Assembly (NCBI RefSeq): GCF_030409635.1
Contig: NZ_JAUFQF010000004.1
Span: 1,770,241-1,834,240, forward strand
Direction: 5' to 3'
DNA: 64,000 nucleotides
DNA from: Vibrio agarivorans
Lineage (GTDB): Bacteria; Pseudomonadota; Gammaproteobacteria; Enterobacterales; Vibrionaceae
Position numbers and translations under genes: made by a program. Positions 7,589 to 57,935 of this stretch are shown one piece after another (the first letter of the stretch is position 1; every line of letters begins with the position of its first letter). The notes beneath the pieces were generated by a model. It was not told the origin of the DNA. It made no database searches and saw only the letters and a program-made list of their open reading frames with translations.

Positions 7589-7610
7589 ACTTGAATGTGA
7601 AGAATAATAG

Positions 7611-7642
7611 AAGCCCAGCAACGTAAACTTGCTGGGCTTTTT
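7611..7642. terminator. Bidirectional terminator between convergent genes
   Basis: AAGCCCAGCAA pairs with TTGCTGGGCTT around a 7-base loop, with a run of T on the plus side. It separates the TIGR03503-type gene from fadE, which converges on it. Confidence 0.85.
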
Positions 7643-7688
7643 ACTTGGGGGGTTACTTAAAGATCCAGTACCAAATTAGCACAGGGCA

Positions 7689-10133
7689 CTATGCGACCTC
7701 TACCAGTTTAGCTGGGCTTTTTTTGGCGGCGAGGTAGTCAGGTTCAAAATCATCGACGTTAATGGTTTCAAGTCGACGAGCTTCGGCTTTACGTAATAAA
7801 TCTGCTTCCTCAGAGGTTAAAATCCCTTCAGCAAGACCAAGTTCTGCAACCGTATCAAGCTGAGTAAAGGGACGACGCTCTTTGCGCGCTTTACACACTT
7901 TGTCGAAAAGAGGCTCTACTTGTAATATCAGACTTAGTGTGTCGTTGATACGGCCGGCTGGGTTATTGCGTGTTGGCTCTAGGTATTGGAAGCGCCCGAT
8001 ACGATCTCTCGATTCATTCGGTGTTTGCATCAACTGCGCGACTTTGTGATCAAGCTTATCGCTTGGTAAGCGACGAACACGCCCGAATGGCAGCAGCAAT
8101 ACACGCAGCGCTCGACCAGTAACTCGATTAGGGAAGTTTGCCAAGAACTCATCAATTGCGACTTCGGCTTGATACAAGCTGTCTTGTAAACCCCATTCCA
8201 GTAGTGGTAAGTCTTCTGTTTTACGTCCTTCTTGATCGAAGCGTTTTAATGTCGCAGAGCTTAGGTAGAGTTGGCTTAGAATATCACCAAGCCGCGCTGA
8301 TAAGCGCTCTTTGCGTTTCAGAGAGCCGCCGAGTACCGCCATTGAAATATCAGAGAGTAACGCAAGGTTGGCGCTGTAGCGATTGAGTTTTTGATAGTAG
8401 CGCTTAGTACTGTCATTGATTGGGCTAGCACTACCATAACCATCGGTCAGGCCGAGCCACAGGCTGCGAACAAGGTTACTCATGGTAAATCCAACGTGAC
8501 CCATTAGCGCATGGTCAAATTGGTCAAGAGCATTGTTGTGCTGTGAATGGGCCGCTTCCATTTCACTTAATACATATGGGTGGCAACGAATCGCGCCTTG
8601 GCCATAGATGATCATTGAGCGAGTTAAGATATTCGCGCCCTCGACCGTTATGGCAATTGGTGCTCCTTGATAGCCACGCGCAAGGAAGTTTGCAGGCCCC
8701 ATACAGATACCTTTACCTCCAACAATATCCATCGCGTCAATCACACTTTGTTGACCTCGGTGAGTACAGTGGTATTTGACAATGGCAGAAATAACCGACG
8801 GTTTCTGGCCTAGATCGATACCTGCAACGGTAAGGTTACTCGCCGCGTCCATCACATAGGCGTTACCCGCGATACGTGACAGTGGCGCTTCGATACCTTC
8901 CATATGACCGATTGGTTGTTTGAACTGTCGACGAATGCGCGCATAAGCGCCAGTGGCCATTGCTGCGGTTTTTAGTGCTCCGGTGCTGTTGGATGGCAGT
9001 GTAATGCCGCGTCCTACAGAGAGACACTCCACCAGCATACGCCAACCTTGTCCTGCCATTTTAGGGCCACCGATGATGTAATCCATTGGTACGAAAAGGT
9101 CGTTGGCACGGGTAGGGCCATTTTGGAAGGGGACATTCAGTGGGAAGTGGCGGTTACCTATCTCAACTCCTTTAAGGTGAGTCGGAATTAGCGCACAAGT
9201 GATGCCAAGATCTTCAGTGTCACCCAATAATCCTTCAGGATCGCGCAGCTTAAAGGCGAGACCAAGCACAGTGGCAACAGGCGCTAGAGTGATATATCGC
9301 TTATTCCAAGTTAGGCGCATACCCAAAACTTCTTTCCCTTCCCATTGGCCTTTGCACACAATGCCAAAATCAGGGATGGCACCCGCATCAGAACCTGCCT
9401 CTGGGCTAGTTAGAGCGAAACAAGGGATCTCTTTACCTTCAGCTAATCGTGGTAGGTAGTGGTCTTGTTGTTCTTTTGTGCCGTAGTGCTGCAGTAACTC
9501 ACCAGGGCCGAGAGAGTTTGGTACGCCAACAGTAGATGAAAGCACAGCAGACACGCCGCTGAGTTTTTGCAGTACTAAAGATTGGGCGTACGCTGAAAAT
9601 TCTAAGCCACCGTATTTTTTCTTGATGATCATGGCAAAGAACTTATTGTCCTTTAAGTATTGCCATACATGAGGAGGTAAATCCGCCAGCTCATGAGTCA
9701 CCTCAAAATCATTCACCATTGCACACACTTCATTGACAGGACCATCAAGAAAGGCTTGCTCTTCAGCGGTCAATTGCGGAGCAGAAATACTGTGTAGGTC
9801 ATCCCACTTCGGTTTGCCTTTGAATAGTTCGGCCTCCCACCAGACCGTGCCTGCGGCGAGTGCCTCTTTTTCTGTTTGAGACATCGCTGGCAGAACCTTG
9901 CGAAAAACCGACAGTGCTTTACGAGAAAATAGTGAGTAGCGAATGCTGGGTACTGTCAGTACTGCTGCAATAGCCGCAAATACAATCCAAGTGATACTAC
10001 CGGTTGAACCAAAAAGTGTGGTGACAAGCATTGCAGCTGCGGTTGTTATGAGTCCTGTCATCAAAGAGAGTCTTTGATAGAGGGCGTAACTGACCGCAAA
10101 GAGGATGACGAGTGTAGAGAGCAAGAGTTCCAT
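7689..10133 (-). CDS. fadE: Acyl-CoA dehydrogenase FadE
   Basis: This 814-residue membrane-associated flavoenzyme performs the first step of fatty acid beta-oxidation, making trans-2-enoyl-CoA. The length equals that of E. coli FadE, far longer than ordinary 380-residue acyl-CoA dehydrogenases. Two hydrophobic segments occupy residues 1-65. The dehydrogenase core contains [14 protein letters not shown] near 240-255, the classical FAD/substrate signature. The long C-terminal domain is typical of the FadE group. A palindromic FadR-type operator lies 47 bp upstream of the start, so repression by FadR is likely. The neighbour gmhA is divergent, as in E. coli. Confidence 0.96.
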
Positions 10134-12633: not shown

Positions 12634-13674
12634 CTAGTTGATCTCTACCTGCTCTTCGCCTTCTTGAGCGGTAGCAATCTCACCAATAACCCATGCATTC
12701 TCGCCTTCAGCTTTAAGAAGCTCAACAGCCGCATCCGCTTGGTCTTTTGGTAGAGCGATTACAAGGCCAACACCACAGTTGAATGTACGGTACATTTCGT
12801 GTGTGTCTACGTTGCCTTTCTCTTGTAGCCATTTAAAGATAACTGGCCATTCCCAGCTGTTGCCATCTACAACCGCTTTCGTGCCTTCAGGAAGAACACG
12901 AGGAATGTTTTCCCAGAAACCACCACCAGTGATGTGTGAGATAGCGTGAATGTCATGCTTCTCAATCATCTTAAGTGCTGATTTGATGTAAATTTTGGTT
13001 GGTTCTAGAAGGTGTTCACCGATAGTGCGGCCTTCTAGCATTTCGCCTTTATCAGCGCCAGAGACTTCTAGAATTTTACGAACTAGAGAGTAACCATTTG
13101 AGTGTGGACCGCTTGAACCGACCGCAATCAGTGCGTCACCTGCTGCAACCTTTGTGCCATCGATAACGTCAGCTTTCTCGACAACACCCACACAGAAGCC
13201 AGCAACATCGTAGTCGTCGCCTTCGTACATGCCAGGCATTTCAGCAGTTTCACCGCCGATTAGCGCACAGCCTGCTTGGATACAGCCATCAGCGATACCA
13301 GATACTACGTCTGCAGCGGTATCAACATCCAGTTTGCCCGTCGCGTAGTAATCTAGGAAGAATAGTGGCTCAGCACCTTGTACGATGAGGTCATTCACAC
13401 ACATTGCTACCAAGTCGATACCAATCGTGTCGTGCTTATTTAGGTCTAGAGCGAGACGAAGTTTTGTACCAACGCCATCAGTACCAGAAACCAAAACAGG
13501 CTCTTTGTATTTAGTTGGAAGTTCACAAAGGGCACCAAAGCCGCCAATACCGCCCATAACTTCAGGGCGACGAGTACGTTTTACCGCACCTTTAATACGA
13601 TCAACCAATGCGTTACCCGCATCGATGTCTACACCAGCGTCTTTGTAGCTAAGAGATGTGTTATTACCACTCAC
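12634..13674 (-). CDS. purM: Phosphoribosylformylglycinamidine cyclo-ligase (AIR synthetase)
   Basis: This 346-residue ATP-dependent enzyme closes FGAM to aminoimidazole ribotide in purine synthesis. Conserved parts include the [12 protein letters not shown] opening, the [14 protein letters not shown] nucleotide-binding segment near 62-75, and [11 protein letters not shown] near 147-157. It is the first gene of a purMN operon. A PurR-type operator lies about 65-80 bp upstream of the start. Confidence 0.97.
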
Positions 13675-13739
13675 GGAGAAATCCTCGGTAGTTAGTTGGA
13701 TGTGAAAACGGCGCTATTCTAACAGTGCTTAAATACAAA

Positions 13740-13755
13740 GAGCAAACGTTTGCGC
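13740..13755. promoter_or_regulatory. PurR operator upstream of purMN
   Basis: The 16-mer GAGCAAACGTTTGCGC matches the PurR consensus ACGCAAACGTTTGCGT at 13 of 16 positions, including the whole central AGCAAACGTTTGC-type core. On the minus strand it overlaps a plausible promoter (TTGCGC, 16 bp, TATTTA), so bound PurR would block purMN transcription. Confidence 0.85.
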
Positions 13756-14058
13756 AAAGTTTTTTATATGCACGTTTGTCTCAAATATAACGCACCCACG
13801 GATGCTAATCGTCGGTAAAGAGAAGGTTAGAGATTTGATACGATGAAACGGATGAGAGAGAAAGTCGGTGTTGTTTGATTAATCTGATCAGTGCTAGGCG
13901 TTAGTGCTCTGAATTGTCGTGACAAATCATCGTTGAGATAGAAGAAGCTAATCGCATATCACTGACATGGGTTAGTTGTTGTACGTGAGCTTTACCCTGC
14001 CCATTTGTCTTTATAAGCGTTATAATCGTTGAGTTTACTGAACTAGTCGGAGAAGAAA

Positions 14059-14685
14059 ATGAAAGTTGTTGAAGTGAAACACCCACTTGTTAAGCACAAA
14101 ATTGGATTGATGCGCGAGGGTGATATCAGCACAAAGCGTTTTCGTGAGTTGGCAACAGAAGTCGGTAGCCTACTAACGTATGAAGCAACGGCAGACTTTG
14201 AAACTGAAAAAGTGACTATTGATGGCTGGAACGGCCCAGTAGAAGTCGATCAGATCAAAGGTAAAAAAGTAACGGTTGTGCCAATTCTACGCGCAGGCCT
14301 AGGTATGATGGATGGTGTCCTTGAGCATATGCCAAGTGCTCGTATCAGTGTGGTTGGTATCTACCGTGACGAAGAGACACTAGAGCCTGTACCATACTTC
14401 AACAAGCTAGCTTCTAACATCGATGAGCGTATCGCGCTTGTTGTTGACCCAATGTTAGCGACGGGTGGTTCGATGATCGCAACTATCGATCTTTTGAAAG
14501 AGAAAGGCTGTCAGCACATCAAAGTGTTGGTACTTGTTGCGGCGCCAGAAGGTATCGAAGCACTAGAAAAAGCGCACCCAGATGTTGAAATGTACACTGC
14601 TGCAATCGATGAGAAGTTAAACGACAAAGGTTACATCGTGCCTGGTCTTGGTGACGCGGGTGACAAAATCTTCGGTACTAAGTAA
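14059..14685 (+). CDS. upp: Uracil phosphoribosyltransferase
   Basis: This 208-residue salvage enzyme joins uracil and PRPP to give UMP. The PRPP-binding loop [11 protein letters not shown] is at about residues 132-142, and the uracil-binding [11 protein letters not shown] lies near the C-terminus. Length is the same as E. coli Upp. GGAGAAG precedes the ATG at good spacing and a TATAAT lies about 30 bp upstream. It faces away from purM as in E. coli, but no uraA permease follows, and rluF converges on it. Confidence 0.97.
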
Positions 14686-30912: not shown

Positions 30913-30941
30913 CGTTTAGCGTTGTTCCAATACCAATAGAT

Positions 30942-30976
30942 AAAAGGCTCTGCAATTAACACGCAGAGCCTTTTTT
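30942..30976. terminator. Bidirectional terminator between the OmpA-family and motor-like genes
   Basis: AAAAGGCTCTGC pairs with GCAGAGCCTTTT around a 9-base loop, with T-runs on both strands. It ends both converging transcripts. Confidence 0.9.
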
Positions 30977-31006
30977 ATGGTTCTTCGCAGATTTTCAGGA
31001 CGGTCG

Positions 31007-31651
31007 CTATTGATAAATAGCAATCACAACTCGTCGGTTGAGTTGTCGCTGTTTATCGCTAAATTCGCCTGTTGTGCCAACTTTAGGGCGCGTGTCCGCA
31101 AAGCCAACGGCTTGGATATGATTGGGATCAATACCAAGCTCAATCAACTTTCGAGTAACGGTAGTGGCTCGAGTGGCGGATAACTCCCAGTTGCTCGCAA
31201 AGATTGCGGATTGAATTGGGACATCATCGGTATGCCCTTCTACCGAAATCATGCGATTTTGGTTGTGCAAATCGGTCTGAGTAAAAGTCTGGATCTCTTC
31301 GGCTAGTTGCTCTAGTAAAGGGATGGTGCTGTCTTTTAGTTGTGCCGAGCCTGTGTCATACAGGTGCTCGTTGGCGATTTCAATTTCAATACGTTGCTCA
31401 AGCTGTTGAACCTCAACCCCTTCGACATCGGTAGAAAAAGTCGTTTCAGGCTGAGACTCTTGCTCAGTACTACCTTGTGACGTTTGTCCCCAACCTTGTT
31501 TAAGTTGCTCAAACTTACCTTCATCAATTTGAGCAACACTGATCAGCATGACAAAAAATGCCAATAACAAAGTGATAGCATCACTGTATGTTGTCATCCA
31601 GTCGTTACCGTCAGAGGTATCTCTACGAGGAGAGAGGGCACGTCGACTCAT
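31007..31651 (-). CDS. Short MotB-like stator protein, last gene of a motor-like operon
   Basis: This 214-residue inner-membrane protein has a cytoplasmic N-terminus, one TM helix (about 23-42) and a C-terminal OmpA/MotB peptidoglycan-binding domain (about 80-212). The helix contains WMTTYSDAITLLL, placing the essential ion-binding Asp at residue 24, the same number as in Vibrio PomB. Wall-binding motifs are SVEGHTDDVPI, NWELSATRA and NRRVVIAI. It is about 90 residues shorter than flagellar MotB/PomB, mainly in the linker. Its ATG overlaps the MotA-like stop (ATGA). Together they would form an ion-driven stator, here paired with a non-flagellar FliG-like protein. Confidence 0.88.
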   Translation of the reverse strand: MSRRALSPRRDTSDGNDWMTTYSDAITLLLAFFVMLISVAQIDEGKFEQLKQGWGQTSQGSTEQESQPETTFSTDVEGVEVQQLEQRIEIEIANEHLYDTGSAQLKDSTIPLLEQLAEEIQTFTQTDLHNQNRMISVEGHTDDVPIQSAIFASNWELSATRATTVTRKLIELGIDPNHIQAVGFADTRPKVGTTGEFSDKQRQLNRRVVIAIYQ

Positions 31652-32433
31652 TGCTCTTTCAATCTATGCTTAGAGGATAGGAAGCCATTCAGGTTGTCTT
31701 TCAGATACAAATCTGGTTTGCGTTCTAAAATCAATACAAATGAGCGCGCTTGCAACTCTCTTAGTTGAAAATTGTCATCGATGCGACGGAATGCCCTTGT
31801 CGCTGCAGGCTTGAAAAGAAGCTGCGCAAAACACACACCGTAAAGGGTAGTCAGCAATGCAATGGCGAGTCCTTTTCCGAGCTCAGCAAAATCGCCACTT
31901 AAATTGTCCAACATGATAATCAGTCCAATAAGTGTCCCTATCATGCCAAACCCGGGCGCGAACGCACCCATGGTTTCTAGCACTTTTGAGCTACGTTCTT
32001 CTTCATGTGACTGGCTGCTATTGCTCTCGGTAAGCATGTTATTGAGCTCTTCACCTTTATATCCTGTTCCAATCAACTCGATACACAAGGTGATAAACTG
32101 GTCTTTCTGCTCTTTTGCAGTTAATGCTCCCTCTAGTGCAGCGATACCGCCATTACGATAAACACTATTGAGCTCTGCCGCACGTTTAATGATGCGATGA
32201 GACTCTTTTTTATAATTGTCCTCGTTAAGCAAGTTGACAAACAGCGTTTTAATTGCCCCTGCCAACAGAGGGAAACTGTAGCTAACGAGGGTGGCTGTGA
32301 ATGTACCGCCTAGTACAATCACAACGCTTGAGTAGCTCACAAACAGCAAATAGTTATCGGTACTCATGACAATCGCACTACCTAAGACGGCAATCGCTGC
32401 CATAAAGCCGGCGAAAGTACTCAGTGATATCAT
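31648..32433 (-). CDS. MotA-like stator protein of the motor-like operon
   Basis: This 261-residue protein has four predicted TM helices: two near the N-terminus (about 5-22 and 29-52), then a cytoplasmic loop of about 100 residues, then TM3 (about 155-175) and TM4 (about 185-207). TM3 and TM4 carry the MotA signatures GAFAPGFGMIGTLIGLIIML and KGLAIALLTTLYGV. Pro160 and Pro209 correspond to the two conserved MotA prolines. The cytoplasmic segment NGGIAALEGAL resembles the torque-contact region of MotA. It overlaps both neighbours by 4 bases, so it is made with the FliG-like protein and the MotB-like protein. These motifs argue against ExbB/TolQ. Confidence 0.88.
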   Translation of the reverse strand: MISLSTFAGFMAAIAVLGSAIVMSTDNYLLFVSYSSVVIVLGGTFTATLVSYSFPLLAGAIKTLFVNLLNEDNYKKESHRIIKRAAELNSVYRNGGIAALEGALTAKEQKDQFITLCIELIGTGYKGEELNNMLTESNSSQSHEEERSSKVLETMGAFAPGFGMIGTLIGLIIMLDNLSGDFAELGKGLAIALLTTLYGVCFAQLLFKPAATRAFRRIDDNFQLRELQARSFVLILERKPDLYLKDNLNGFLSSKHRLKEQ

Positions 32434-34142
32434 GCCGCAAGATCTCCCATAGAGAACAGGTTATCGTCCATCGCAGCGCGCAAGCGTTGTACGACTTGGG
32501 CTTTATAATCATTACGAACATCAGGCGACAGCGTTTGTGCCGACTCTATTTCTTGAGATACCGCCATCTTTAGACGATCAGGGAAGCCTGCCAGTATGTA
32601 ATCCGATTTAGCTTGGTCTAAATCAGCGATAGCACCAGCGAGAACCGTTAGCTCAAGGCTACGAAGCACATTACTAAGTACATCTTGTGGAGTACGCAAG
32701 ATATCCTCAAAGGCGTAGTATTTCTTACGCAGCGACAAGTAAGCATTAGGGGACTCTAACTTCACCTTATTCAGTAGTGCGCTTTGCTGCTTAATGGTCA
32801 TGCTGTCAAGAAGTTTGATCAACAGGTCATTTCCATCCGTGACGACGTTTTCCACTTTTGGTGCCCACTGCGCACGCTCTGCAAGCTGAGCCGCTACCTC
32901 GCGATAAGTCGCCAGTGGAATAGTGTCGAGCTGAGCAATCTCAATAGCGACTTGTGTTCGCTCTTGTTCATCGAGCAGCGCAAGTAAGTCGGAAGAGACT
33001 TTTGCATTAAGCTGTGACAAAACAATCGCTTTAATACGAGTAGGTTGATCATTGAGCACCCAGTGAACCTGATTGGTGTCCATACGTTCAAGGAAGGCAA
33101 AAGGTCGAGATTGACCTTGAGCGCGCTGATCTTCATTGCTGTTCTTTAGCAGTTGATGAAGGTCACTCATTTGTGTCACTAGGGTATCGTAGTCTGCCGG
33201 GTGCTCTTCAAGGTATCGAAGGTATGCTGGAATTCGCGATTCAAGGCTTGGGTACATTGAAGTAAACAGTGAGCGGCCGAGCTCTTGGTAGCATGCGGCT
33301 AACATTGGTAAGTTTTGCTCGTTTAGACTTAGCCTCTCCATTATGGCTGTGACTTTGCTTGGTTCAGCGAGACTGTAAGCGATAAGATCTTGGCGAATCG
33401 ATTTGAGTTCCGCTTTCTTAGTATTCAGCAACTGTTGTGGGCTCGTGGGCGCTTCTTCTTGATATACGGGTTGGCATGCTCGTTTATTACGAGTAAGTAG
33501 CCAAATGAGCAGAAGCAACACCAGCGCACCACCGATGGCGGCTAATATCCACCACTGTTGAGTAGTCTCTGAATCACTGTCTACTAGAGGTTCTGTAGTT
33601 GCATCAGGCGCTTGAGCGCGAATTAGTTCTGCTCGTTGAACGCGGATCTCGTCTCCACGAAGTGGGTCATAGTTTAACTTCTTGGCGACTAATCCACGTA
33701 TTGTCGCCACATCTTCTCCATTGATCGAATGATCGATCACCAGGAGTGTTTGGATGTTACGTACAGTTTCGCCGCTGACTGGCGGCACGGCGGCGACTTG
33801 TGGATTTTCTTCAACAGGAGGCTGAATAGGCTCAATATCAGGTTGTGTTTGAGAGAGACCTGGCAACTTAGGTTGCACTAAAGGTGCTATCGGTGGCTGC
33901 GACATGCTTTGCGTTTGTGCCACGGGAGCTGGGTTATGACTGGCGTTCTCGGAATGACTGGTTAGCTCAATATCAATATCGAGAATAAAAGCATCTGCAT
34001 CAATGACGCGTTCAATATCGCGACTGATACGTGTCTCAAGCACAGAAGCAAGTTCAAACTGACGAATTTGCAGTTCAGCAATTGCAGGTACGGCAATCAG
34101 GGCAATCAACCCAAAAGAGAGGAAACGGTGCATATTATTCAC
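32430..34142 (-). CDS. FliF C-terminal-like/FliG-like chimeric membrane protein
   Basis: This 570-residue protein has a signal-type N-terminus (1-22), a Pro/Gln-rich periplasmic stretch (about 65-120), then a FliF-like end of the third ring-building domain (about 128-175, LLVIDHSINGEDVATIRGLV then NYDPLRGDEIRV). One TM helix follows (about 197-217). The cytoplasmic part matches FliG: a middle domain (about 345-424) with PFAFLERMDTNQVHWVLNDQ, and a C-terminal domain (about 432-565) with KKYYAFEDIL and VLRSLELTVLAGAI. FliF RBM1 and RBM2 are missing. The FliG EHPQ motif reads NDQP, and the acidic DD of the torque helix is reduced to PQD. By family logic it would be the rotor partner of the MotAB-like stator. 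Confidence 0.82.
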   Translation of the reverse strand: MNNMHRFLSFGLIALIAVPAIAELQIRQFELASVLETRISRDIERVIDADAFILDIDIELTSHSENASHNPAPVAQTQSMSQPPIAPLVQPKLPGLSQTQPDIEPIQPPVEENPQVAAVPPVSGETVRNIQTLLVIDHSINGEDVATIRGLVAKKLNYDPLRGDEIRVQRAELIRAQAPDATTEPLVDSDSETTQQWWILAAIGGALVLLLLIWLLTRNKRACQPVYQEEAPTSPQQLLNTKKAELKSIRQDLIAYSLAEPSKVTAIMERLSLNEQNLPMLAACYQELGRSLFTSMYPSLESRIPAYLRYLEEHPADYDTLVTQMSDLHQLLKNSNEDQRAQGQSRPFAFLERMDTNQVHWVLNDQPTRIKAIVLSQLNAKVSSDLLALLDEQERTQVAIEIAQLDTIPLATYREVAAQLAERAQWAPKVENVVTDGNDLLIKLLDSMTIKQQSALLNKVKLESPNAYLSLRKKYYAFEDILRTPQDVLSNVLRSLELTVLAGAIADLDQAKSDYILAGFPDRLKMAVSQEIESAQTLSPDVRNDYKAQVVQRLRAAMDDNLFSMGDLAA

Positions 34143-34608
34143 CTACCCAAGCAAGAATGTCTTTAACATCAGGTTGGTTCGGATTGAGTTCTAGAGAGCG
34201 TTTCCACGCTTGTCTTGCGCCCGCTGAATCGCCTAACTTAAATAGCACGCTTCCCTTTAGGGCATGTGTTTCTGCCATGTTTGGAGCGTGCTCAAGTGCA
34301 CTTTCTAGTGCTTCCAGTGCTTGAGTGAAGTTCTCACCCTCCGCGAGAGACTGTGCAGAGTTTGATAGTTCTACCGCTTTGTTGATGTCTCCAGTGATAG
34401 ATGAGGTATCTTCGTCATCTTGATCACCGTTATGTTCGCTAGTATCAATGTGTAAAATGACGTTTGGATCATTGATATCTAGGTTTAGTGAGCTTTCATA
34501 CCCTGCGGTCTTGTGAGAGATAACCACTATGTTATTTGCGTTGTCATTTGATTGAGCCCACACAATAGAGCAGCTCATCAACAGCATAAATGTCATCAAT
34601 AACTTCAT
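34135..34608 (-). CDS. Secreted TPR protein of the motor-like operon
   Basis: This 157-residue protein has a signal sequence (MKLLMTFMLLMSCSIVWAQ). It could be cut after VWA; a poor lipobox (LMSC13) is also visible, so a lipoprotein is possible. After an acidic low-complexity linker, about residues 76-150 form two TPR units (LAEGENFTQALEALESALEH and KLGDSAGARQAWKRSLELNP). TPR units bind partner proteins, so it may bridge the inner and outer membrane parts. It overlaps the following gene by 8 bp and starts 9 bp after the outer-membrane barrel gene. Confidence 0.8.
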   Translation of the reverse strand: MKLLMTFMLLMSCSIVWAQSNDNANNIVVISHKTAGYESSLNLDINDPNVILHIDTSEHNGDQDDEDTSSITGDINKAVELSNSAQSLAEGENFTQALEALESALEHAPNMAETHALKGSVLFKLGDSAGARQAWKRSLELNPNQPDVKDILAWVGE

Positions 34609-34617
34609 ATCAAACCC

Positions 34618-35661
34618 TTAAAATCGGAAACCAAGCGTAAAATCGATCGCAATATCACCAAGTGCTCGCTCACTGTAGTAGTAATTTATTCCTGAACGAG
34701 ATTGTTCAGCAAAGTGGACGATGCCGAGATCGAAATACCCATACTCTGCGTATTCGAGCTCAAAACCTGCTCGGAAGGAGATATCGTGGCTGTCATCAAT
34801 GAAGGTTTGTCCTACACCCACGTAGGCATGTACATCTAACCAAGTTGGAGACTGTGTTAATCCATAGTAAACACGCCCCTCTACACCCCATCCATCAACG
34901 GTATAGTATCGGCTGTCTAAGCTCTTAAAGTAGTGGCCAACAAAGCCATAACTGATACGTTTTTGACTATCGCGGTAAGAGTGATAGCGCAGGCTGAAAT
35001 CAGTGACGTTAGAAAAGTTTTCATGCTGCCCGGAGATCGAAGGATATACATCGCTCTCAAAGCCAAGGTAGCTTACCGCCATACCCCAACGACCTTTACG
35101 ACTCATCTCTTCGGCTTTGGCATAGACATAGCTGTCAGACCAAACCACTTGGTTATTCAGTGTTTTGACCAAGCGCAGTGAGATATCGTAAGAATCGAGA
35201 TGCGGACGAACATCCCAGAATAAAAACGCATCGGCACTGATGTCATTAGCGACATCGCGCAGCATCTCATTGCTTTCAACACCTCGCTTGATGCGAATGC
35301 CGTCATCCGTCATATTGACGTGAGTTTTATTGCATTCGATACACTCACGTACGGCAATATCATGTTGGTGCAACATACGGTAGATCATTGCCTGAACTTG
35401 GCTCTCGATGTTTTCGCCATGGCCATCAGGTAAATAGGTTTCGTTGTAAATTGCAACAGCGCGAATGTTCTCGCGTCGAATTTGATCTTTGATTTCAAAC
35501 CATCGCTCGTCTTGTTCAAGAAACTCTTGAATGAGTGTGAGATGGTTGTCGTCGTAGTGAGATGGCGTGGTATTTGTCGCCTGAACTGACTGAGCGCTGA
35601 ATAGAAGAAGTGCACTAGTGCATAAAAGGTACTTGAACAAAGTGGTATCTCTGTGCAACAC
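34618..35661 (-). CDS. Outer-membrane barrel protein with FlgO/CsgG-like N-terminal domain, first gene of the motor-like operon
   Basis: This 347-residue protein has a signal peptide (about 1-28). An alpha/beta domain follows (about 62-185): IRAVAIYNETYL, then ESQVQAMIYRMLHQHDIAV, then ADAFLFWDVR, ISLRLVKTLNNQVVWSDSY. This order resembles the FlgO/CsgG/TolB-N fold, with weak similarity to FlgO at 37.2 kb. Residues about 190-347 are beta strands rich in Tyr/Phe and end FTLGFRF, the terminal Phe of an outer-membrane barrel. A Cys pair (CIEC) lies in the N-domain. It probably forms the outer-membrane station of the complex. The promoter region is the 302 bp downstream of flgT. Confidence 0.72.
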   Translation of the reverse strand: MLHRDTTLFKYLLCTSALLLFSAQSVQATNTTPSHYDDNHLTLIQEFLEQDERWFEIKDQIRRENIRAVAIYNETYLPDGHGENIESQVQAMIYRMLHQHDIAVRECIECNKTHVNMTDDGIRIKRGVESNEMLRDVANDISADAFLFWDVRPHLDSYDISLRLVKTLNNQVVWSDSYVYAKAEEMSRKGRWGMAVSYLGFESDVYPSISGQHENFSNVTDFSLRYHSYRDSQKRISYGFVGHYFKSLDSRYYTVDGWGVEGRVYYGLTQSPTWLDVHAYVGVGQTFIDDSHDISFRAGFELEYAEYGYFDLGIVHFAEQSRSGINYYYSERALGDIAIDFTLGFRF

Positions 35662-35963
35662 ATAGTTCCATTGTAACGTTGCTTACTGGTTGGAGTTAGC
35701 AGGTGGTTTCCATTTACCCGAAAATATACAGTGACTTAATAGCTGTTTTTATTGGTTAATCTGTAATTTAGCTTTAAGTGTCGCGCAGGTTACATATTGT
35801 TGAATGTAAATTGGGAATATCGCCGATTCCATATGGAAATATGACAATTATGGTTGGTTGATAGGTGTGGAAATCAGTAGTGAAGGGTCTAAAGATAACA
35901 AAGGACTGGTCTATGTCTAAACCAGTCCTTGAGGCATTAATTAAATTACGTTGAACTCTATTG
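35662..35963. other. Intergenic region between flgT and the motor-like operon
   Basis: The region holds a flgT terminator hairpin (35901-35930) and an AT-rich stretch that should contain the operon promoter. A weak FliA-like pattern, TCATATTT, 12 bp, GGCGATAT (35817-35844, minus strand), is the only candidate I noticed, and the match is poor. No gene is visible. Confidence 0.5.
35901..35930 (-). terminator. Terminator after flgT
   Basis: AAGGACTGG pairs perfectly with CCAGTCCTT around a 12-base loop, with a T-rich tail on the minus strand, 34 bp after the flgT stop. It separates flgT from the downstream motor-like operon. Confidence 0.75.
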
Positions 35964-55217: not shown

Positions 55218-55302
55218 TGGTGCGGAAGGAGAGACTTGAACTCTCACACCTTGCGGCGCCAGAACCTAAATCTGGTGCGTCTACCAATTCCGCCACTTCC
55301 GC
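55218..55302 (-). tRNA. tRNA-Leu (UAG), copy 1 from left
   Basis: 85-nt gene with encoded CCA; acceptor GCGGAAG/CTTCCGC, anticodon loop TTTAGGT (anticodon TAG) and long variable arm. Very similar to E. coli leuW. Confidence 0.97.
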
Positions 55303-55353
55303 ATCAATTTTGTAGTCTTAGCTGATGATTGGTGAATCAACTAGACGTTGTGT

Positions 55354-55428
55354 TGGCTGGGCTACCAAGAGCCGAACCTGGGACAATAGATGGGGCATCA
55401 AAACTCTATGCTCCAATACTGAACCATT
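55354..55428 (-). pseudogene. Decayed tRNA-Gln-like copy 1
   Basis: Keeps the 3' end of tRNA-Gln (TAGCCCAGCCA) and the anticodon loop TTTTGAT. The 5' acceptor strand and anticodon stem no longer pair and the T-stem has one mismatch, so a working cloverleaf is unlikely. Confidence 0.75.
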
Positions 55429-55435
55429 TAAATAA

Positions 55436-55510
55436 TGGCTGGGCTACCTGGATTCGAACCAGGGAATGGCGGCATCAAAAGCCGCTGCCTTACCGCTTGG
55501 CGATAGCCCA
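55436..55510 (-). tRNA. tRNA-Gln (UUG), copy 1 from left
   Basis: 75-nt gene with encoded CCA; acceptor TGGGCTA/TAGCCCA, anticodon loop TTTTGAT flanked by GCGGC/GCCGC. Confidence 0.97.
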
Positions 55511-55545
55511 ACAGGATTGTTTAAAGTGTCAATCACACTAAATAA

Positions 55546-55630
55546 TGGTGCGGAAGGAGAGACTTGAACTCTCACACCTTGCGGCGCCAGAACCTAAATC
55601 TGGTGCGTCTACCAATTCCGCCACTTCCGC
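55546..55630 (-). tRNA. tRNA-Leu (UAG), copy 2
   Basis: Identical to copy 1, in the order Leu then decayed Gln-like then Gln as read left to right. Confidence 0.97.
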
Positions 55631-55681
55631 ATCAATTTTGTAGTCTTAGCTGATGATTGGTGAATCAACTAGACGTTGTGT

Positions 55682-55756
55682 TGGCTGGGCTACCAAGAGC
55701 CGAACCTGGGACAATAGATGGGGCATCAAAACTCTATGCTCCAATACTGAACCATT
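55682..55756 (-). pseudogene. Decayed tRNA-Gln-like copy 2
   Basis: Identical to the first decayed copy, including its flanks, so it arose by duplication of the whole Leu/decayed-Gln/Gln block of about 328 bp. Confidence 0.75.
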
Positions 55757-55763
55757 TAAATAA

Positions 55764-55838
55764 TGGCTGGGCTACCTGGATTCGAACCAGGGAATGGCGG
55801 CATCAAAAGCCGCTGCCTTACCGCTTGGCGATAGCCCA
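55764..55838 (-). tRNA. tRNA-Gln (UUG), copy 2
   Basis: Same 75-nt sequence as copy 1, with encoded CCA. Confidence 0.97.
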
Positions 55839-55873
55839 ACAGGATTGTTTAAGATGTCAATCACATCAAATAA

Positions 55874-55958
55874 TGGTGCGGAAGGAGAGACTTGAACTCT
55901 CACACCTTGCGGCGCCAGAACCTAAATCTGGTGCGTCTACCAATTCCGCCACTTCCGC
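55874..55958 (-). tRNA. tRNA-Leu (UAG), copy 3
   Basis: Same 85-nt sequence as copy 1. Confidence 0.97.
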
Positions 55959-56030
55959 AACGCTGTTTATTCTCTAGCTAAGAGTGTAGTTAAACCGACA
56001 ATTGGTAAAGTCGATGTAACGTTGTATAAA

Positions 56031-56107
56031 TGGTGGCTACGACGGGATTCGAACCTGTGACCCCATCATTATGAGTGATGTGCTCTAACCAGCTGAGCTA
56101 CGTAGCC
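56031..56107 (-). tRNA. tRNA-Met (CAU, elongator), copy 1 from left
   Basis: 77-nt gene with encoded CCA; acceptor GGCTACG/CGTAGCC and anticodon loop CTCATAA. It is almost the same as E. coli metT, and the paired acceptor marks it as elongator rather than initiator. Confidence 0.96.
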
Positions 56108-56135
56108 AATTTACTAAATTAATAGTAAAGAATAA

Positions 56136-56220
56136 TGGTGCGGAAGGAGAGACTTGAACTCTCACACCTTGCGGCGCCAGAACCTAAATCTGGTGCGTCT
56201 ACCAATTCCGCCACTTCCGC
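56136..56220 (-). tRNA. tRNA-Leu (UAG), copy 4
   Basis: Same 85-nt sequence as copy 1. Confidence 0.97.
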
Positions 56221-56271
56221 ATCAATTTTGTAGTCTTAGCTGATGATTGGTGAATCAACTAGACGTTGTGT

Positions 56272-56346
56272 TGGCTGGGCTACCTGGATTCGAACCAGGG
56301 AATGGCGGCATCAAAAGCCGCTGCCTTACCGCTTGGCGATAGCCCA
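56272..56346 (-). tRNA. tRNA-Gln (UUG), copy 3
   Basis: Same 75-nt sequence. The left flank is the one that precedes a decayed Gln-like copy elsewhere, so that copy has been deleted here by recombination. Confidence 0.97.
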
Positions 56347-56381
56347 ACAGGATTGTTTAAAGTGTCAATCACACTAAATAA

Positions 56382-56466
56382 TGGTGCGGAAGGAGAGACT
56401 TGAACTCTCACACCTTGCGGCGCCAGAACCTAAATCTGGTGCGTCTACCAATTCCGCCACTTCCGC
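56382..56466 (-). tRNA. tRNA-Leu (UAG), copy 5
   Basis: Same 85-nt sequence as copy 1. Confidence 0.97.
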
Positions 56467-56520
56467 AACAAATCTTTAGTTAAGCCGACAATTGGTAAAG
56501 TCGAAATAACATTGTATAAA

Positions 56521-56597
56521 TGGTGGCTACGACGGGATTCGAACCTGTGACCCCATCATTATGAGTGATGTGCTCTAACCAGCTGAGCTACGTAGCC
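56521..56597 (-). tRNA. tRNA-Met (CAU, elongator), copy 2
   Basis: Same 77-nt sequence as Met copy 1. Confidence 0.96.
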
Positions 56598-56625
56598 AAT
56601 TTACTAAATTAATAGTAAAGAATAA

Positions 56626-56710
56626 TGGTGCGGAAGGAGAGACTTGAACTCTCACACCTTGCGGCGCCAGAACCTAAATCTGGTGCGTCTACCAATTCCG
56701 CCACTTCCGC
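56626..56710 (-). tRNA. tRNA-Leu (UAG), copy 6
   Basis: Same 85-nt sequence as copy 1. Confidence 0.97.
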
Positions 56711-56794
56711 ATCAATTCTGTAGTTAAGAGAGCAATTGGTAAAGCTCGATCTCAACGTTGTGTTTCGTCATTAAAGACAAGTCACTATAAATAG

Positions 56795-56868
56795 TGGCTG
56801 GGCTACCTAGAGCCGAACCTGGGACAATAGATGGGGCATCAAAAACTGTGCTCCAATATTGAACCATT
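56795..56868 (-). pseudogene. Decayed tRNA-Gln-like copy 3 (diverged)
   Basis: Same type as the other two decayed copies but with several substitutions and one base shorter. It keeps the anticodon-like TTTTTGAT and the TAGCCCAGCCA end, and sits in a different left flank. Confidence 0.72.
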
Positions 56869-56875
56869 TAAATAA

Positions 56876-56950
56876 TGGCTGGGCTACCTGGATTCGAACC
56901 AGGGAATGGCGGCATCAAAAGCCGCTGCCTTACCGCTTGGCGATAGCCCA
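56876..56950 (-). tRNA. tRNA-Gln (UUG), copy 4
   Basis: Same 75-nt sequence as copy 1. Confidence 0.97.
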
Positions 56951-57002
56951 ACAGCGAACAATTCATTTAGACATATAGTCAGAAACAATTCGTTCTAAAT
57001 AA

Positions 57003-57087
57003 TGGTGCGGAAGGAGAGACTTGAACTCTCACACCTTGCGGCGCCAGAACCTAAATCTGGTGCGTCTACCAATTCCGCCACTTCCGC
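57003..57087 (-). tRNA. tRNA-Leu (UAG), copy 7
   Basis: Same 85-nt sequence as copy 1. Confidence 0.97.
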
Positions 57088-57138
57088 ATCAATTTTATAG
57101 TCTTAGCTGATGATTGGTGAATCAACTAGACGTTGTGT

Positions 57139-57213
57139 TGGCTGGGCTACCTGGATTCGAACCAGGGAATGGCGGCATCAAAAGCCGCTGCCTTACCGCT
57201 TGGCGATAGCCCA
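57139..57213 (-). tRNA. tRNA-Gln (UUG), copy 5
   Basis: Same 75-nt sequence; again the flank of a decayed copy is joined directly to an intact Gln gene. Confidence 0.97.
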
Positions 57214-57248
57214 ACAGGATTGTTTAAAGTGTCAATCACACTAAATAA

Positions 57249-57333
57249 TGGTGCGGAAGGAGAGACTTGAACTCTCACACCTTGCGGCGCCAGAACCTAA
57301 ATCTGGTGCGTCTACCAATTCCGCCACTTCCGC
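57249..57333 (-). tRNA. tRNA-Leu (UAG), copy 8
   Basis: Same 85-nt sequence as copy 1. Confidence 0.97.
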
Positions 57334-57387
57334 AACAAATCTTTAGTTAAACCGACAATTGGTAAAGTCGATGTAACATTGTATAAA

Positions 57388-57464
57388 TGGTGGCTACGAC
57401 GGGATTCGAACCTGTGACCCCATCATTATGAGTGATGTGCTCTAACCAGCTGAGCTACGTAGCC
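57388..57464 (-). tRNA. tRNA-Met (CAU, elongator), copy 3
   Basis: Same 77-nt sequence as Met copy 1. Confidence 0.96.
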
Positions 57465-57543
57465 ACTCTTGAGAGCCGAAGAATATAATACAAACTCCGC
57501 TCTAGTGCCAACTCTTTTTTCAAATAATTGTCACTTTTAATAT

Positions 57544-57618
57544 TGGCTGGGCTACCTGGATTCGAACCAGGGAATGGCGGCATCAAAAGCCGCTGCCTTA
57601 CCGCTTGGCGATAGCCCA
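57544..57618 (-). tRNA. tRNA-Gln (UUG), copy 6
   Basis: Same 75-nt sequence as copy 1. Confidence 0.97.
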
Positions 57619-57670
57619 ACAGCGAACAATTCATTTAGACATATAGTCAAAAACAATTCGTTCTAAATAA

Positions 57671-57755
57671 TGGTGCGGAAGGAGAGACTTGAACTCTCAC
57701 ACCTTGCGGCGCCAGAACCTAAATCTGGTGCGTCTACCAATTCCGCCACTTCCGC
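57671..57755 (-). tRNA. tRNA-Leu (UAG), copy 9
   Basis: Same 85-nt sequence as copy 1. Confidence 0.97.
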
Positions 57756-57858
57756 ATTGCTGTTTAATCTCTAGCTAAGAGTGTAGTTATCTAAGATGAT
57801 TGGTTAATCTTAATAACGTTGTCTTTTCTAAAAACTCTTTAAAAAAGCATTTAGAAAA

Positions 57859-57935
57859 TGGTGGCTACGACGGGATTCGAACCTGTGACCCCATCATTAT
57901 GAGTGATGTGCTCTAACCAGCTGAGCTACGTAGCC
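57859..57935 (-). tRNA. tRNA-Met (CAU, elongator), copy 4, first in transcription
   Basis: Same 77-nt sequence as Met copy 1. It is the promoter-proximal gene, as metT is in the E. coli metT-leuW-glnU operon. Confidence 0.96.

What the first reader, a model, noticed from the sequence alone, without database searches (positions are those of the whole stretch)
31007..35661. Five-gene operon for a possible stand-alone rotary envelope machine built from flagellar parts
The minus-strand genes are packed with 4-bp and 8-bp overlaps or a 9-bp gap: an outer-membrane barrel with FlgO-like domain, a secreted TPR protein, a FliF/FliG-like chimera, a MotA-like protein and a MotB-like protein. This combines a stator, a rotor-like torque partner and an outer-membrane part, without rod, hook, export or filament genes. 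Flagellar genes of the normal set lie outside the operon and are complete on their own terms. I know of MotAB-like modules in other systems (ExbBD, TolQR, Zorya), but none with a FliF/FliG chimera and an outer-membrane barrel. Mechanical work across the envelope is inferred from family roles only.
Basis: partly seen in the sequence, partly recalled or inferred. Interest (0 to 1): 0.93.

Follow-up and report, generated by a model that had tools for sequence, protein, structure and literature searches.

The report
Flagellar motor parts without a flagellum
A rare but conserved set of five neighbouring genes in mostly marine bacteria encodes what looks like a small ion-driven rotary motor made of flagellum-type motor parts plus an outer-membrane part, but no propeller or export machinery, so it may do mechanical work on the cell envelope of a kind not yet described.

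Summary
Five tightly packed minus-strand genes (31007-35661) encode a predicted outer-membrane barrel protein, a TPR protein, a FliF/FliG chimera, a MotA-like and a MotB-like protein. The chimera is real: residues 17-174 are a FliF RBM3 ring domain, 192-221 a membrane helix, 346-565 FliG middle plus C-terminal domains, by profile (98-99.5% probability), by solved-structure sequences (E 1e-28 FliG, 1e-10 FliF) and by predicted fold. The same five genes occur together in 14 of the 15 carrier genomes whose locus I saw (13 in identical order). The nearest relative by flgT lacks exactly this block between ompA and flgT. One 93%-complete carrier shows no FlhA, flagellar FliG, Flg_bbr_C protein or flagellar MotA. 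The MotB channel aspartate and most stator-rotor contact residues are kept, while FliM-binding motifs are eroded. In Vibrio fischeri the apparent equivalent stator (motA2B2) was mutated in 2013 without loss of swimming. I read it as a stand-alone ion-driven rotor-stator machine coupled to the outer membrane. Ring formation, rotation and output are inferred. I found no description of the system in ten searches of open-access papers.

The parts
34618..35661 (-). Gene 1: predicted outer-membrane protein, 347 aa; signal sequence (by eye), N-terminal domain nearest LpoB (model residues 43-182), C-terminal 8-stranded barrel (about 186-347) ending in FRF; conserved C-I-E-C motif
34135..34608 (-). Gene 2: secreted TPR protein, 157 aa (apparent lipoprotein in five of the ten aligned operons: L028-L032, by eye)
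   Evidence: TPR_2 E 1.2e-10; alignment
32430..34142 (-). Gene 3: FliF/FliG chimera, 570 aa
33957..34073 (-). Chimera, first half of FliF-type RBM3 ring domain (residues 24-62)
33774..33956 (-). Chimera, disordered insert (63-123) with invariant LPGL, at the place of the FliF beta-collar
   Evidence: alignment; pLDDT under 50 for 64-123
33621..33773 (-). Chimera, second half of RBM3 (124-174) with invariant RGD
33480..33569 (-). Chimera, membrane helix (192-221), aligned to the FliF TM2 region
33108..33446 (-). Chimera, helical middle part (233-345); no FliG similarity by profile, partly laid on the FliG N-terminal region by the structure aligner
   Evidence: hhalign probability 0.1; VIA-align 276-570 on FliG 5-328 rmsd 10.7
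32868..33107 (-). Chimera, FliG middle domain (346-425)
32448..32762 (-). Chimera, FliG C-terminal (torque) domain (461-565)
31648..32433 (-). Gene 4: MotA-like stator subunit, 261 aa; R93, E101, P160, T196, P209 match E. coli MotA R90, E98, P173, T209, P222
   Evidence: Pfam 6.1e-22; PomA NCBIfam 6.8e-37 but below cut-off; residues
31007..31651 (-). Gene 5: MotB-like stator subunit, 214 aa; channel Asp24 (E. coli D32), OmpA-type peptidoglycan-binding domain
   Evidence: Pfam MotB_plug 2.4e-15, OmpA 2.3e-15; Asp in 13 of 13 operons
30913..35960 (.). Block absent from the nearest relative G007, where flgT and ompA are 98 bp apart
   Evidence: blastn, sequence
35901..35930 (-). Terminator-like hairpin after flgT, separating it from the operon
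   Evidence: 13-pair stem, (8 terminator-like sites found in the region, 4.3 expected)
30946..30970 (.). Hairpin flanked by A and T runs between the convergent motB-like gene and ompA (read by eye)
   Evidence: sequence

Best explanation
The five genes encode a stand-alone, ion-driven rotor-stator machine of the cell envelope. MotA-like pentamers around MotB-like dimers, anchored to peptidoglycan, let ions through and turn. Their cytoplasmic loops gear against the FliG-type ring of the chimera, whose FliF-type RBM3 domain and single membrane helix make it one ring across the inner membrane (MS ring and C ring in one protein, with no FliM/FliN switch). The ring's periplasmic face, via its proline-rich linker, couples to the TPR protein and to the outer-membrane barrel protein, so torque or rotation reaches the outer membrane or cell surface. 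Shown here by sequence and prediction: composition, domain identity, linkage, kept contact residues, purifying selection in two close pairs, independence from flagellar loci. Inferred: stoichiometry, ring formation, rotation, direction of coupling, and that the output is at the outer membrane.
For: Chimera is FliF RBM3+TM and FliG M+C by profile, with crossed controls at 0.1-0.2% probability, by PDB sequence profile (FliG 1.3e-28, FliF 1.1e-10) and by fold. In 13 operons: MotA R90 equivalent R in 12, E98 E/D in 12; FliG R281 R/K in 13, D289 E/D in 12; MotB D32 in 13. H126 is lost and Q128 is R/K in 13 of 13, and GG is DG in the window's protein, which fits absence of FliM. Five genes linked in 14 of 15 carriers. 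Carrier G372 has no FlhA, no flagellar FliG, no Flg_bbr_C and no MotA other than the operon's and a TolQ-like one. dN/dS 0.005-0.39 for the five genes in two close pairs. Published V. fischeri motA2 and motB2 insertion mutants had no soft-agar motility effect and motA2B2 is not FlrA-activated (PMC3948606 passages).
Against: No experiment shows rotation, assembly or an envelope phenotype. FliG K264 is kept in 0 of 13, R297 as R/K in 2, D288 as acidic in 4. The chimera model has pTM 0.31, so domain arrangement is unknown, and no multimer was predicted. No physical link to the barrel or TPR protein is shown. Most carriers also have flagella (FlhA in 14 of 15, one of them in pieces; flagellar FliG in 13 of 15). 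G372 is a fragmented 93%-complete assembly. One carrier has lost the TPR gene, so the unit can decay. Identity of V. fischeri motA2B2 with this operon is by elimination in A. fischeri and one congeneric genome, not read in ES114 itself.
Confidence: 0.65

Rival explanations
1. It is an accessory of the polar flagellum: an extra stator with its own rotor-like ring and outer-membrane collar that adds torque, brakes, or helps rotate or shed the flagellar sheath.
For: In the window it sits beside flgT and the flgOP genes; 13 of 15 carriers have a flagellar FliG; a sub-threshold Pfam FlgO match in the barrel protein (E 0.21, residues 88-180); motA2/motB2 fell together with fliA in one V. fischeri biofilm model (PMC10804989 passage).
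Against: Among the loci seen the place beside flgT is found only in this genome, and the nearest relative lacks the block; a terminator-like hairpin separates it from flgT; carrier G372 shows no flagellum; motA2B2 not FlrA-activated and mutants swim; rare, 7 of 329 genomes of the family.
Confidence: 0.17
2. It is an energiser like TolQR/ExbBD: MotAB drives conformational strokes of the chimera, which pulls the TPR protein and the barrel to move outer-membrane components, without a rotating ring.
For: Envelope-spanning layout with a predicted outer-membrane client whose N-terminal domain is nearest LpoB in fold.
Against: Operon MotA groups with flagellar MotA against TolQ/ExbB types at 100/100 and keeps most flagellar contact residues; a FliG torque domain and an RBM3 domain would be unexplained.
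Confidence: 0.12
3. It is an anti-phage system of the Zorya kind.
For: MotB-like protein scores with ZorB models (2.9e-24), as other MotB proteins may; patchy distribution.
Against: ZorA only 0.006 and no PADLOC family at all for the other three proteins; no effector nuclease or helicase among the five. The neighbours were not scanned with PADLOC.
Confidence: 0.03
4. It is a dying leftover of a lost second flagellum.
For: One carrier (G258) has a deletion that removes the TPR gene and the ends of its neighbours.
Against: Same five genes kept together in distant genera, and under purifying selection in the two pairs tested; the domain fusion and the barrel protein are not flagellar remains.
Confidence: 0.03

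Closest known systems
Bacterial flagellar motor (FliF MS ring, FliG of the C ring, MotAB/PomAB stators)
   Same: RBM3 ring domain, TM2-like helix, FliG M and C domains, stator pair with channel Asp and most contact residues
   Different: FliF and FliG parts are one short protein with one RBM and one membrane helix; FliM-binding motif eroded; no FliM/FliN, rod, hook, filament or export gene among the five; own barrel and TPR protein
Engineered FliF-FliG fusion of the marine Vibrio motor (PMC11481574, abstract start seen; apparently PDB 8z4d/8z4g)
   Same: FliF joined to FliG on one chain; hit by the chimera profile in two stretches
   Different: Man-made, 945 residues; the chimera here is natural, lacks RBM1/RBM2 and has a disordered collar insert
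V. fischeri motA2B2 (VF_A0186/VF_A0187)
   Same: Very probably the stator pair of this same operon: apart from a PomAB-like pair, the only MotA-MotB pair found in A. fischeri and one congeneric genome; tags from PMC10804989
   Different: Treated in print as a flagellar paralogue without motility phenotype; the chimera, TPR and barrel genes are not mentioned in the passages I saw
TolQR-TolA-TolB-Pal and ExbBD-TonB
   Same: Ion-driven inner-membrane pair working on the outer membrane
   Different: No TolA/TonB family among the five proteins; MotA on the flagellar side of the tree
GldLM and AglRQS-Glt gliding motors (recalled, not tested here)
   Same: Ion-driven motor coupled to outer-membrane parts without a flagellum
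   Different: No FliF/FliG-type rotor, as far as I recall
Zorya (ZorAB)
   Same: MotAB-like pair outside the flagellum
   Different: No rotor ring or barrel, as far as I recall; ZorA match weak
Vibrio FlgO/FlgP/FlgT outer-membrane disc and H ring (roles recalled)
   Same: Outer-membrane side proteins of a motor
   Different: Pfam FlgO E 0.21, below cut-off; gene 1 has a predicted C-terminal barrel

Membership tests
Flagellar motor: rotor FliG | FliG middle and C-terminal domains | tested here: met
   Pfam 6.7e-13 and 1e-10 over cut-offs; hhalign 99.5%; rmsd 1.3-1.6 A. Against: NCBIfam fliG 59 bits, under its 226.7 cut-off
Flagellar motor: rotor FliG | FliM-binding EHPQ motif and GG motif | tested here: not met
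   E kept in 12 of 13, H in 0, P in 3, Q in 0 (R/K in 13); GG is DG in the window's protein
Flagellar motor: rotor FliG | Charged torque residues K264, R281, D288, D289, R297 (E. coli) | tested here: inconclusive
   R281 R/K 13 of 13, D289 E/D 12 of 13, D288 acidic 4 of 13, K264 0 of 13, R297 R/K 2 of 13; this genome's second flagellar FliG also has S, E, S at 288, 289, 297 but keeps K264
Flagellar motor: MS ring FliF | RBM3 ring domain followed by a membrane helix | tested here: met
Flagellar motor: MS ring FliF | Full FliF with TM1, RBM1 and RBM2 | tested here: not met
   Match starts at E. coli FliF residue 227; only RBM3-TM2 present
Flagellar stator MotAB | MotB channel aspartate and peptidoglycan-binding domain; MotA prolines and loop R/E | tested here: met
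   Asp, P173, P222 13 of 13; R90 12 of 13; E98 E/D 12 of 13; OmpA domain 2.3e-15. Against: the NCBIfam MotA/MotB models shown are all under their cut-offs
Flagellar stator MotAB | Groups with flagellar MotA rather than TolQ/ExbB | tested here: met
   100/100 branch; but outside the 10 sampled flagellar rows (97/84), operon side itself only 40/73
Bacterial flagellum | Export gate, rod, hook or filament gene in the unit | tested here: not met
   None among the five proteins
Bacterial flagellum | Occurs only in genomes with a flagellum | tested here: not met
   G372: no FlhA, Flg_bbr_C, flagellar FliG or flagellar MotA; assembly 93% complete, 810 contigs
Zorya | ZorA with long tail plus ZorB and effector genes | tested here: not met
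   ZorA 0.006; no PADLOC family in the other three proteins; neighbours not scanned
TolQR/ExbBD | TolQ/ExbB-type A subunit and TolA/TonB | tested here: not met
   Tree; no such Pfam family in the five proteins
FlgO | Pfam FlgO above its cut-off | tested here: not met
   11.9 bits against 22.6
Agl-Glt and Gld gliding machines | Their motor and outer-membrane components | not tested
   Only Pfam, NCBIfam and PADLOC (and PHROGs for three proteins) were searched

The most novel reading that the evidence does not exclude
A rotary machine in which a flagellar-type MS/C-ring rotor works without the type III export apparatus, rod or filament, and drives an outer-membrane complex instead. Because the operon's MotA branches beside, not inside, the ten sampled flagellar MotAs, an old sister lineage of the flagellar motor is not excluded.
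Probability: 0.58. Interest if true: 0.95.

Novelty: categorically new. Interest (0 to 1): 0.89.

Why it matters
As far as I know, every rotor of the FliF/FliG kind studied so far belongs to a flagellum (recalled). A conserved rotor-stator unit without export, rod or filament would show that the flagellar motor is separable from the flagellum, would give a very small natural rotary motor of this type (five genes, rotor in one chain), and would open a new output: mechanical work on the outer membrane. It makes long-standing questions testable: what is the least needed for MotAB-driven rotation, what sets ring size, and whether the motor preceded or left the flagellum. V. fischeri is a tractable host that appears to carry it.

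Tried and rejected
Looked for a shared sixth gene: among scanned flanks, near-identical neighbours are shared only between related carriers (the Aliivibrio pair; V. penaeicida with G258; Thalassolituus, Oleispira and Bermanella). Between distant carriers only broad families match, chiefly response regulators and kinases at 22-42% identity, and helicases. A kinase/regulator pair stands directly upstream in A. fischeri and G064, a response-regulator/GGDEF gene in V. penaeicida and G258, and a response regulator further upstream in L028 (with 16, 32); control by signalling is possible but no common gene is shown. Other neighbours scanned (AsmA-like, M66 peptidase, Ig-like surface protein, PhoX, inverse autotransporter, Sel1/SPOR, molybdopterin enzyme, cytochrome) differ.

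Looked for mobile or viral carriage: no match of the barrel protein on plasmids or phages at 1e-5. The MotA-like protein matched 25 plasmid records, all under 60% identity; of the 10 rows listed, 8 are annotated as MotA-type or proton-channel proteins and 2 carry no annotation. PHROGs gave only a weak TPR hit; only short two-copy repeats; GC unremarkable.

FliF Pfam model alone was too weak (E 0.07); rejected as evidence until the profile and structure comparisons. A Pfam FliG_N hit (1.3e-6, residues 372-460, above its cut-off) overlaps the FliG_M region and I do not count it as an N-domain; the part before residue 346 has no FliG profile similarity, though the structure aligner lays 276-570 on FliG 5-328 with large rmsd.

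A protein-database search with the barrel profile listed only 5 proteins: the window's near-copy, a Saccharospirillaceae assembly, Marinicellulosiphila megalodicopiae and two unnamed. It missed barrel proteins that I have in hand from other loci, so it is no census; its hits were not followed to loci. The chimera searches scored only the 7998 candidates sharing most words, and the genome scan used two short patterns, so the carrier list is a lower bound. Proteins named Aliivibrio finisterrensis and Vibrio nigripulchritudo are likely further carriers whose loci I did not see.

Promoter scan was uninformative: 7 sites against 8.4 expected.

Rows dropped: residue counts use 13 operons of the 15 carriers (V. 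penaeicida 6E01 and damaged G258 left out); close pairs remain among the 13, so counts are not independent. hhalign kept 17-18 of the 20 chimeras. A third dN/dS pair was saturated for four of five genes.
Full report
CHECK. The genome's own flagellar sets are separate: three FliG_C hits, one of them the chimera, two FlhA, a PomAB-like and an E. coli-type MotAB pair elsewhere. In 61 near genomes a protein search with the chimera found it full-length only in the own genome; the listed matches elsewhere have 16-22% identity and lie in frames of the length of ordinary FliG.

THE STATOR PAIR. Across 13 operons the MotB channel Asp and MotA P173, T209 and P222 are invariant; MotA R90 is R in 12, E98 is E/D in 12; FliG R281 is R/K in 13 and D289 is E/D in 12. 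K264 is kept in none, R297 as R/K in two, D288 as acidic in four; this genome's second flagellar FliG also departs at 288 and 297. Of the FliM-binding EHPQ motif E survives in 12 of 13, P in 3, H and Q in none, and GG is DG in the window's protein. A passage of PMC12505986 names R90/D288-D289 and E98/R281 as the stator-rotor contacts. The reading is a rotor that still meets its stator but has no switch. A tree of 33 MotA-family proteins puts the operon's 13 with 10 flagellar ones against 10 TolQ/ExbB types at 100/100 (labels mine); the flagellar ten form one side at 97/84, the operon thirteen only at 40/73. The program warns of long branches, so origin from within or beside the flagellar motor is open. 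That paper's passages say non-flagellar relatives lack features tied to motility; the pair here keeps contact residues outside a flagellar gene set.

CONSERVATION. The protein database gave 11 chimeras, one of them the window's own, from a capped candidate list. Nine loci from named genomes - Aliivibrio fischeri, two Vibrio penaeicida, a Shewanellaceae assembly, a Pseudomonadales assembly, two Thalassolituus, Oleispira and Bermanella - all hold the five genes in one order and strand (in L031 gene 1 is cut by the contig end). The barrel profile found 7 of 329 genomes of the family, the own one included, own plus G372 and G404 in a class sample of 369, besides the orphan in G473 and two weak hits, and only the own genome in a phylum sample of 299. 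Fourteen have all five genes: 13 in the same order, one (G404) as motA-motB-barrel-TPR-chimera. One (G258) has a deletion from gene 1 into gene 3. Near-identical flanks are shared only among related carriers; across distant ones only broad families such as response regulators recur. dN/dS in two close pairs is 0.005-0.39; a third pair was mostly saturated.

NOT PART OF THE FLAGELLAR CLUSTER. In G007, the relative with the most similar flgT (89%), the DNA matches the window up to 30912 and again from 35961, with 98 bp between; the other three relatives read at this place lack the operon there too. So the neighbourhood of flgT is a matter of where the block landed or stayed, and a 13-pair hairpin closes flgT off. 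Of the 15 carriers 14 have FlhA (in G064 in pieces with stops) and 13 a flagellar FliG (G989 shows only the chimera but has FlhA and eight Flg_bbr_C matches). G372 has neither, has no Flg_bbr_C match and only two MotA_ExbB proteins, the operon's and one on the TolQ branch; its contig carries what I read as ordinary housekeeping genes. It is 93% complete in 810 contigs, so this is strong but not final.

LITERATURE. Passages of PMC3948606 report that V. [quoted passage not shown] A passage of PMC10804989 gives motA2/VF_A0186 and motB2/VF_A0187 and lists them among genes reduced under RscS overexpression. In A. fischeri (G063) and the congeneric G064 the MotA-MotB pairs found are a PomAB-like pair and this operon's; a further 227-aa relative first left unread is an ExbB beside an ExbD-like protein (labels by eye), and one weak 706-aa match (E 2.5e-4) was not read. 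So I take motA2B2 to be its stator; I did not read ES114 itself. Ten full-text searches of the open-access PMC library listed no description of the five-gene unit or of a natural FliF/FliG chimera that I could recognise from titles, abstract starts and the passages read; most preprints and subscription journals are not in that library.

MECHANISM. Ion flow through MotAB turns MotA, which gears the FliG-type ring of the chimera (contacts mostly kept: shown by sequence; motion: inferred). The ring spans the inner membrane by its own helix and meets, through its RBM3 face and linker, the TPR protein and the barrel's periplasmic domain (inferred from linkage and predicted location). The output is work at the outer membrane or surface, for example moving a surface structure, remodelling the membrane or opening the barrel's complex (open). 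I put 0.65 on a stand-alone rotor-stator machine with an outer-membrane output, 0.17 on a flagellar accessory, 0.12 on a non-rotating energiser.

VERDICT. Parts known, assembly new. It works like a flagellar motor core but fails membership in the flagellum on tested features, so I rate it categorically new, interest 0.89.

Noticed in passing
window 55221-57935, minus strand: Nineteen tRNA genes, apparently of three kinds by score, in a repeated array; two near-identical short ORFs (55329-55541, 55657-55977) overlap tRNA-containing DNA.
   Followed up: no
L050 (G258) about 8001-10074: A same-genus relative with a deletion running from the 3' part of the barrel gene into the 5' part of the chimera, TPR gene lost, motA and motB matches full-length.
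   Followed up: partly
L054 (G473) 7607-8668: A barrel-protein homologue without any of the motor genes in the 19 kb read.
   Followed up: partly
L024 6120-8179; L026 6819-8042: Signalling genes directly upstream of the operon on the same strand: a response regulator and histidine kinase in A. fischeri, a response-regulator/GGDEF protein in V. penaeicida. Possible control, not a shared gene.
   Followed up: partly
G064:C1:2120593-2122558: flhA matches in three pieces with stops in a genome whose five-gene operon is intact; real decay or assembly error not decided.
   Followed up: no
L169/L178 (G009) and L170/L179 (G018): flgT matches split into two pieces in two same-genus relatives.
   Followed up: no
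L053 (G404) 12974-14545: A Sel1-repeat plus SPOR-domain protein directly upstream of the rearranged motA-motB-barrel-TPR-chimera unit.
   Followed up: no
window 34618-35661 and relatives: An invariant C-x-E-C pair in the barrel protein's N-terminal domain (alignment), of unknown role.
   Followed up: no
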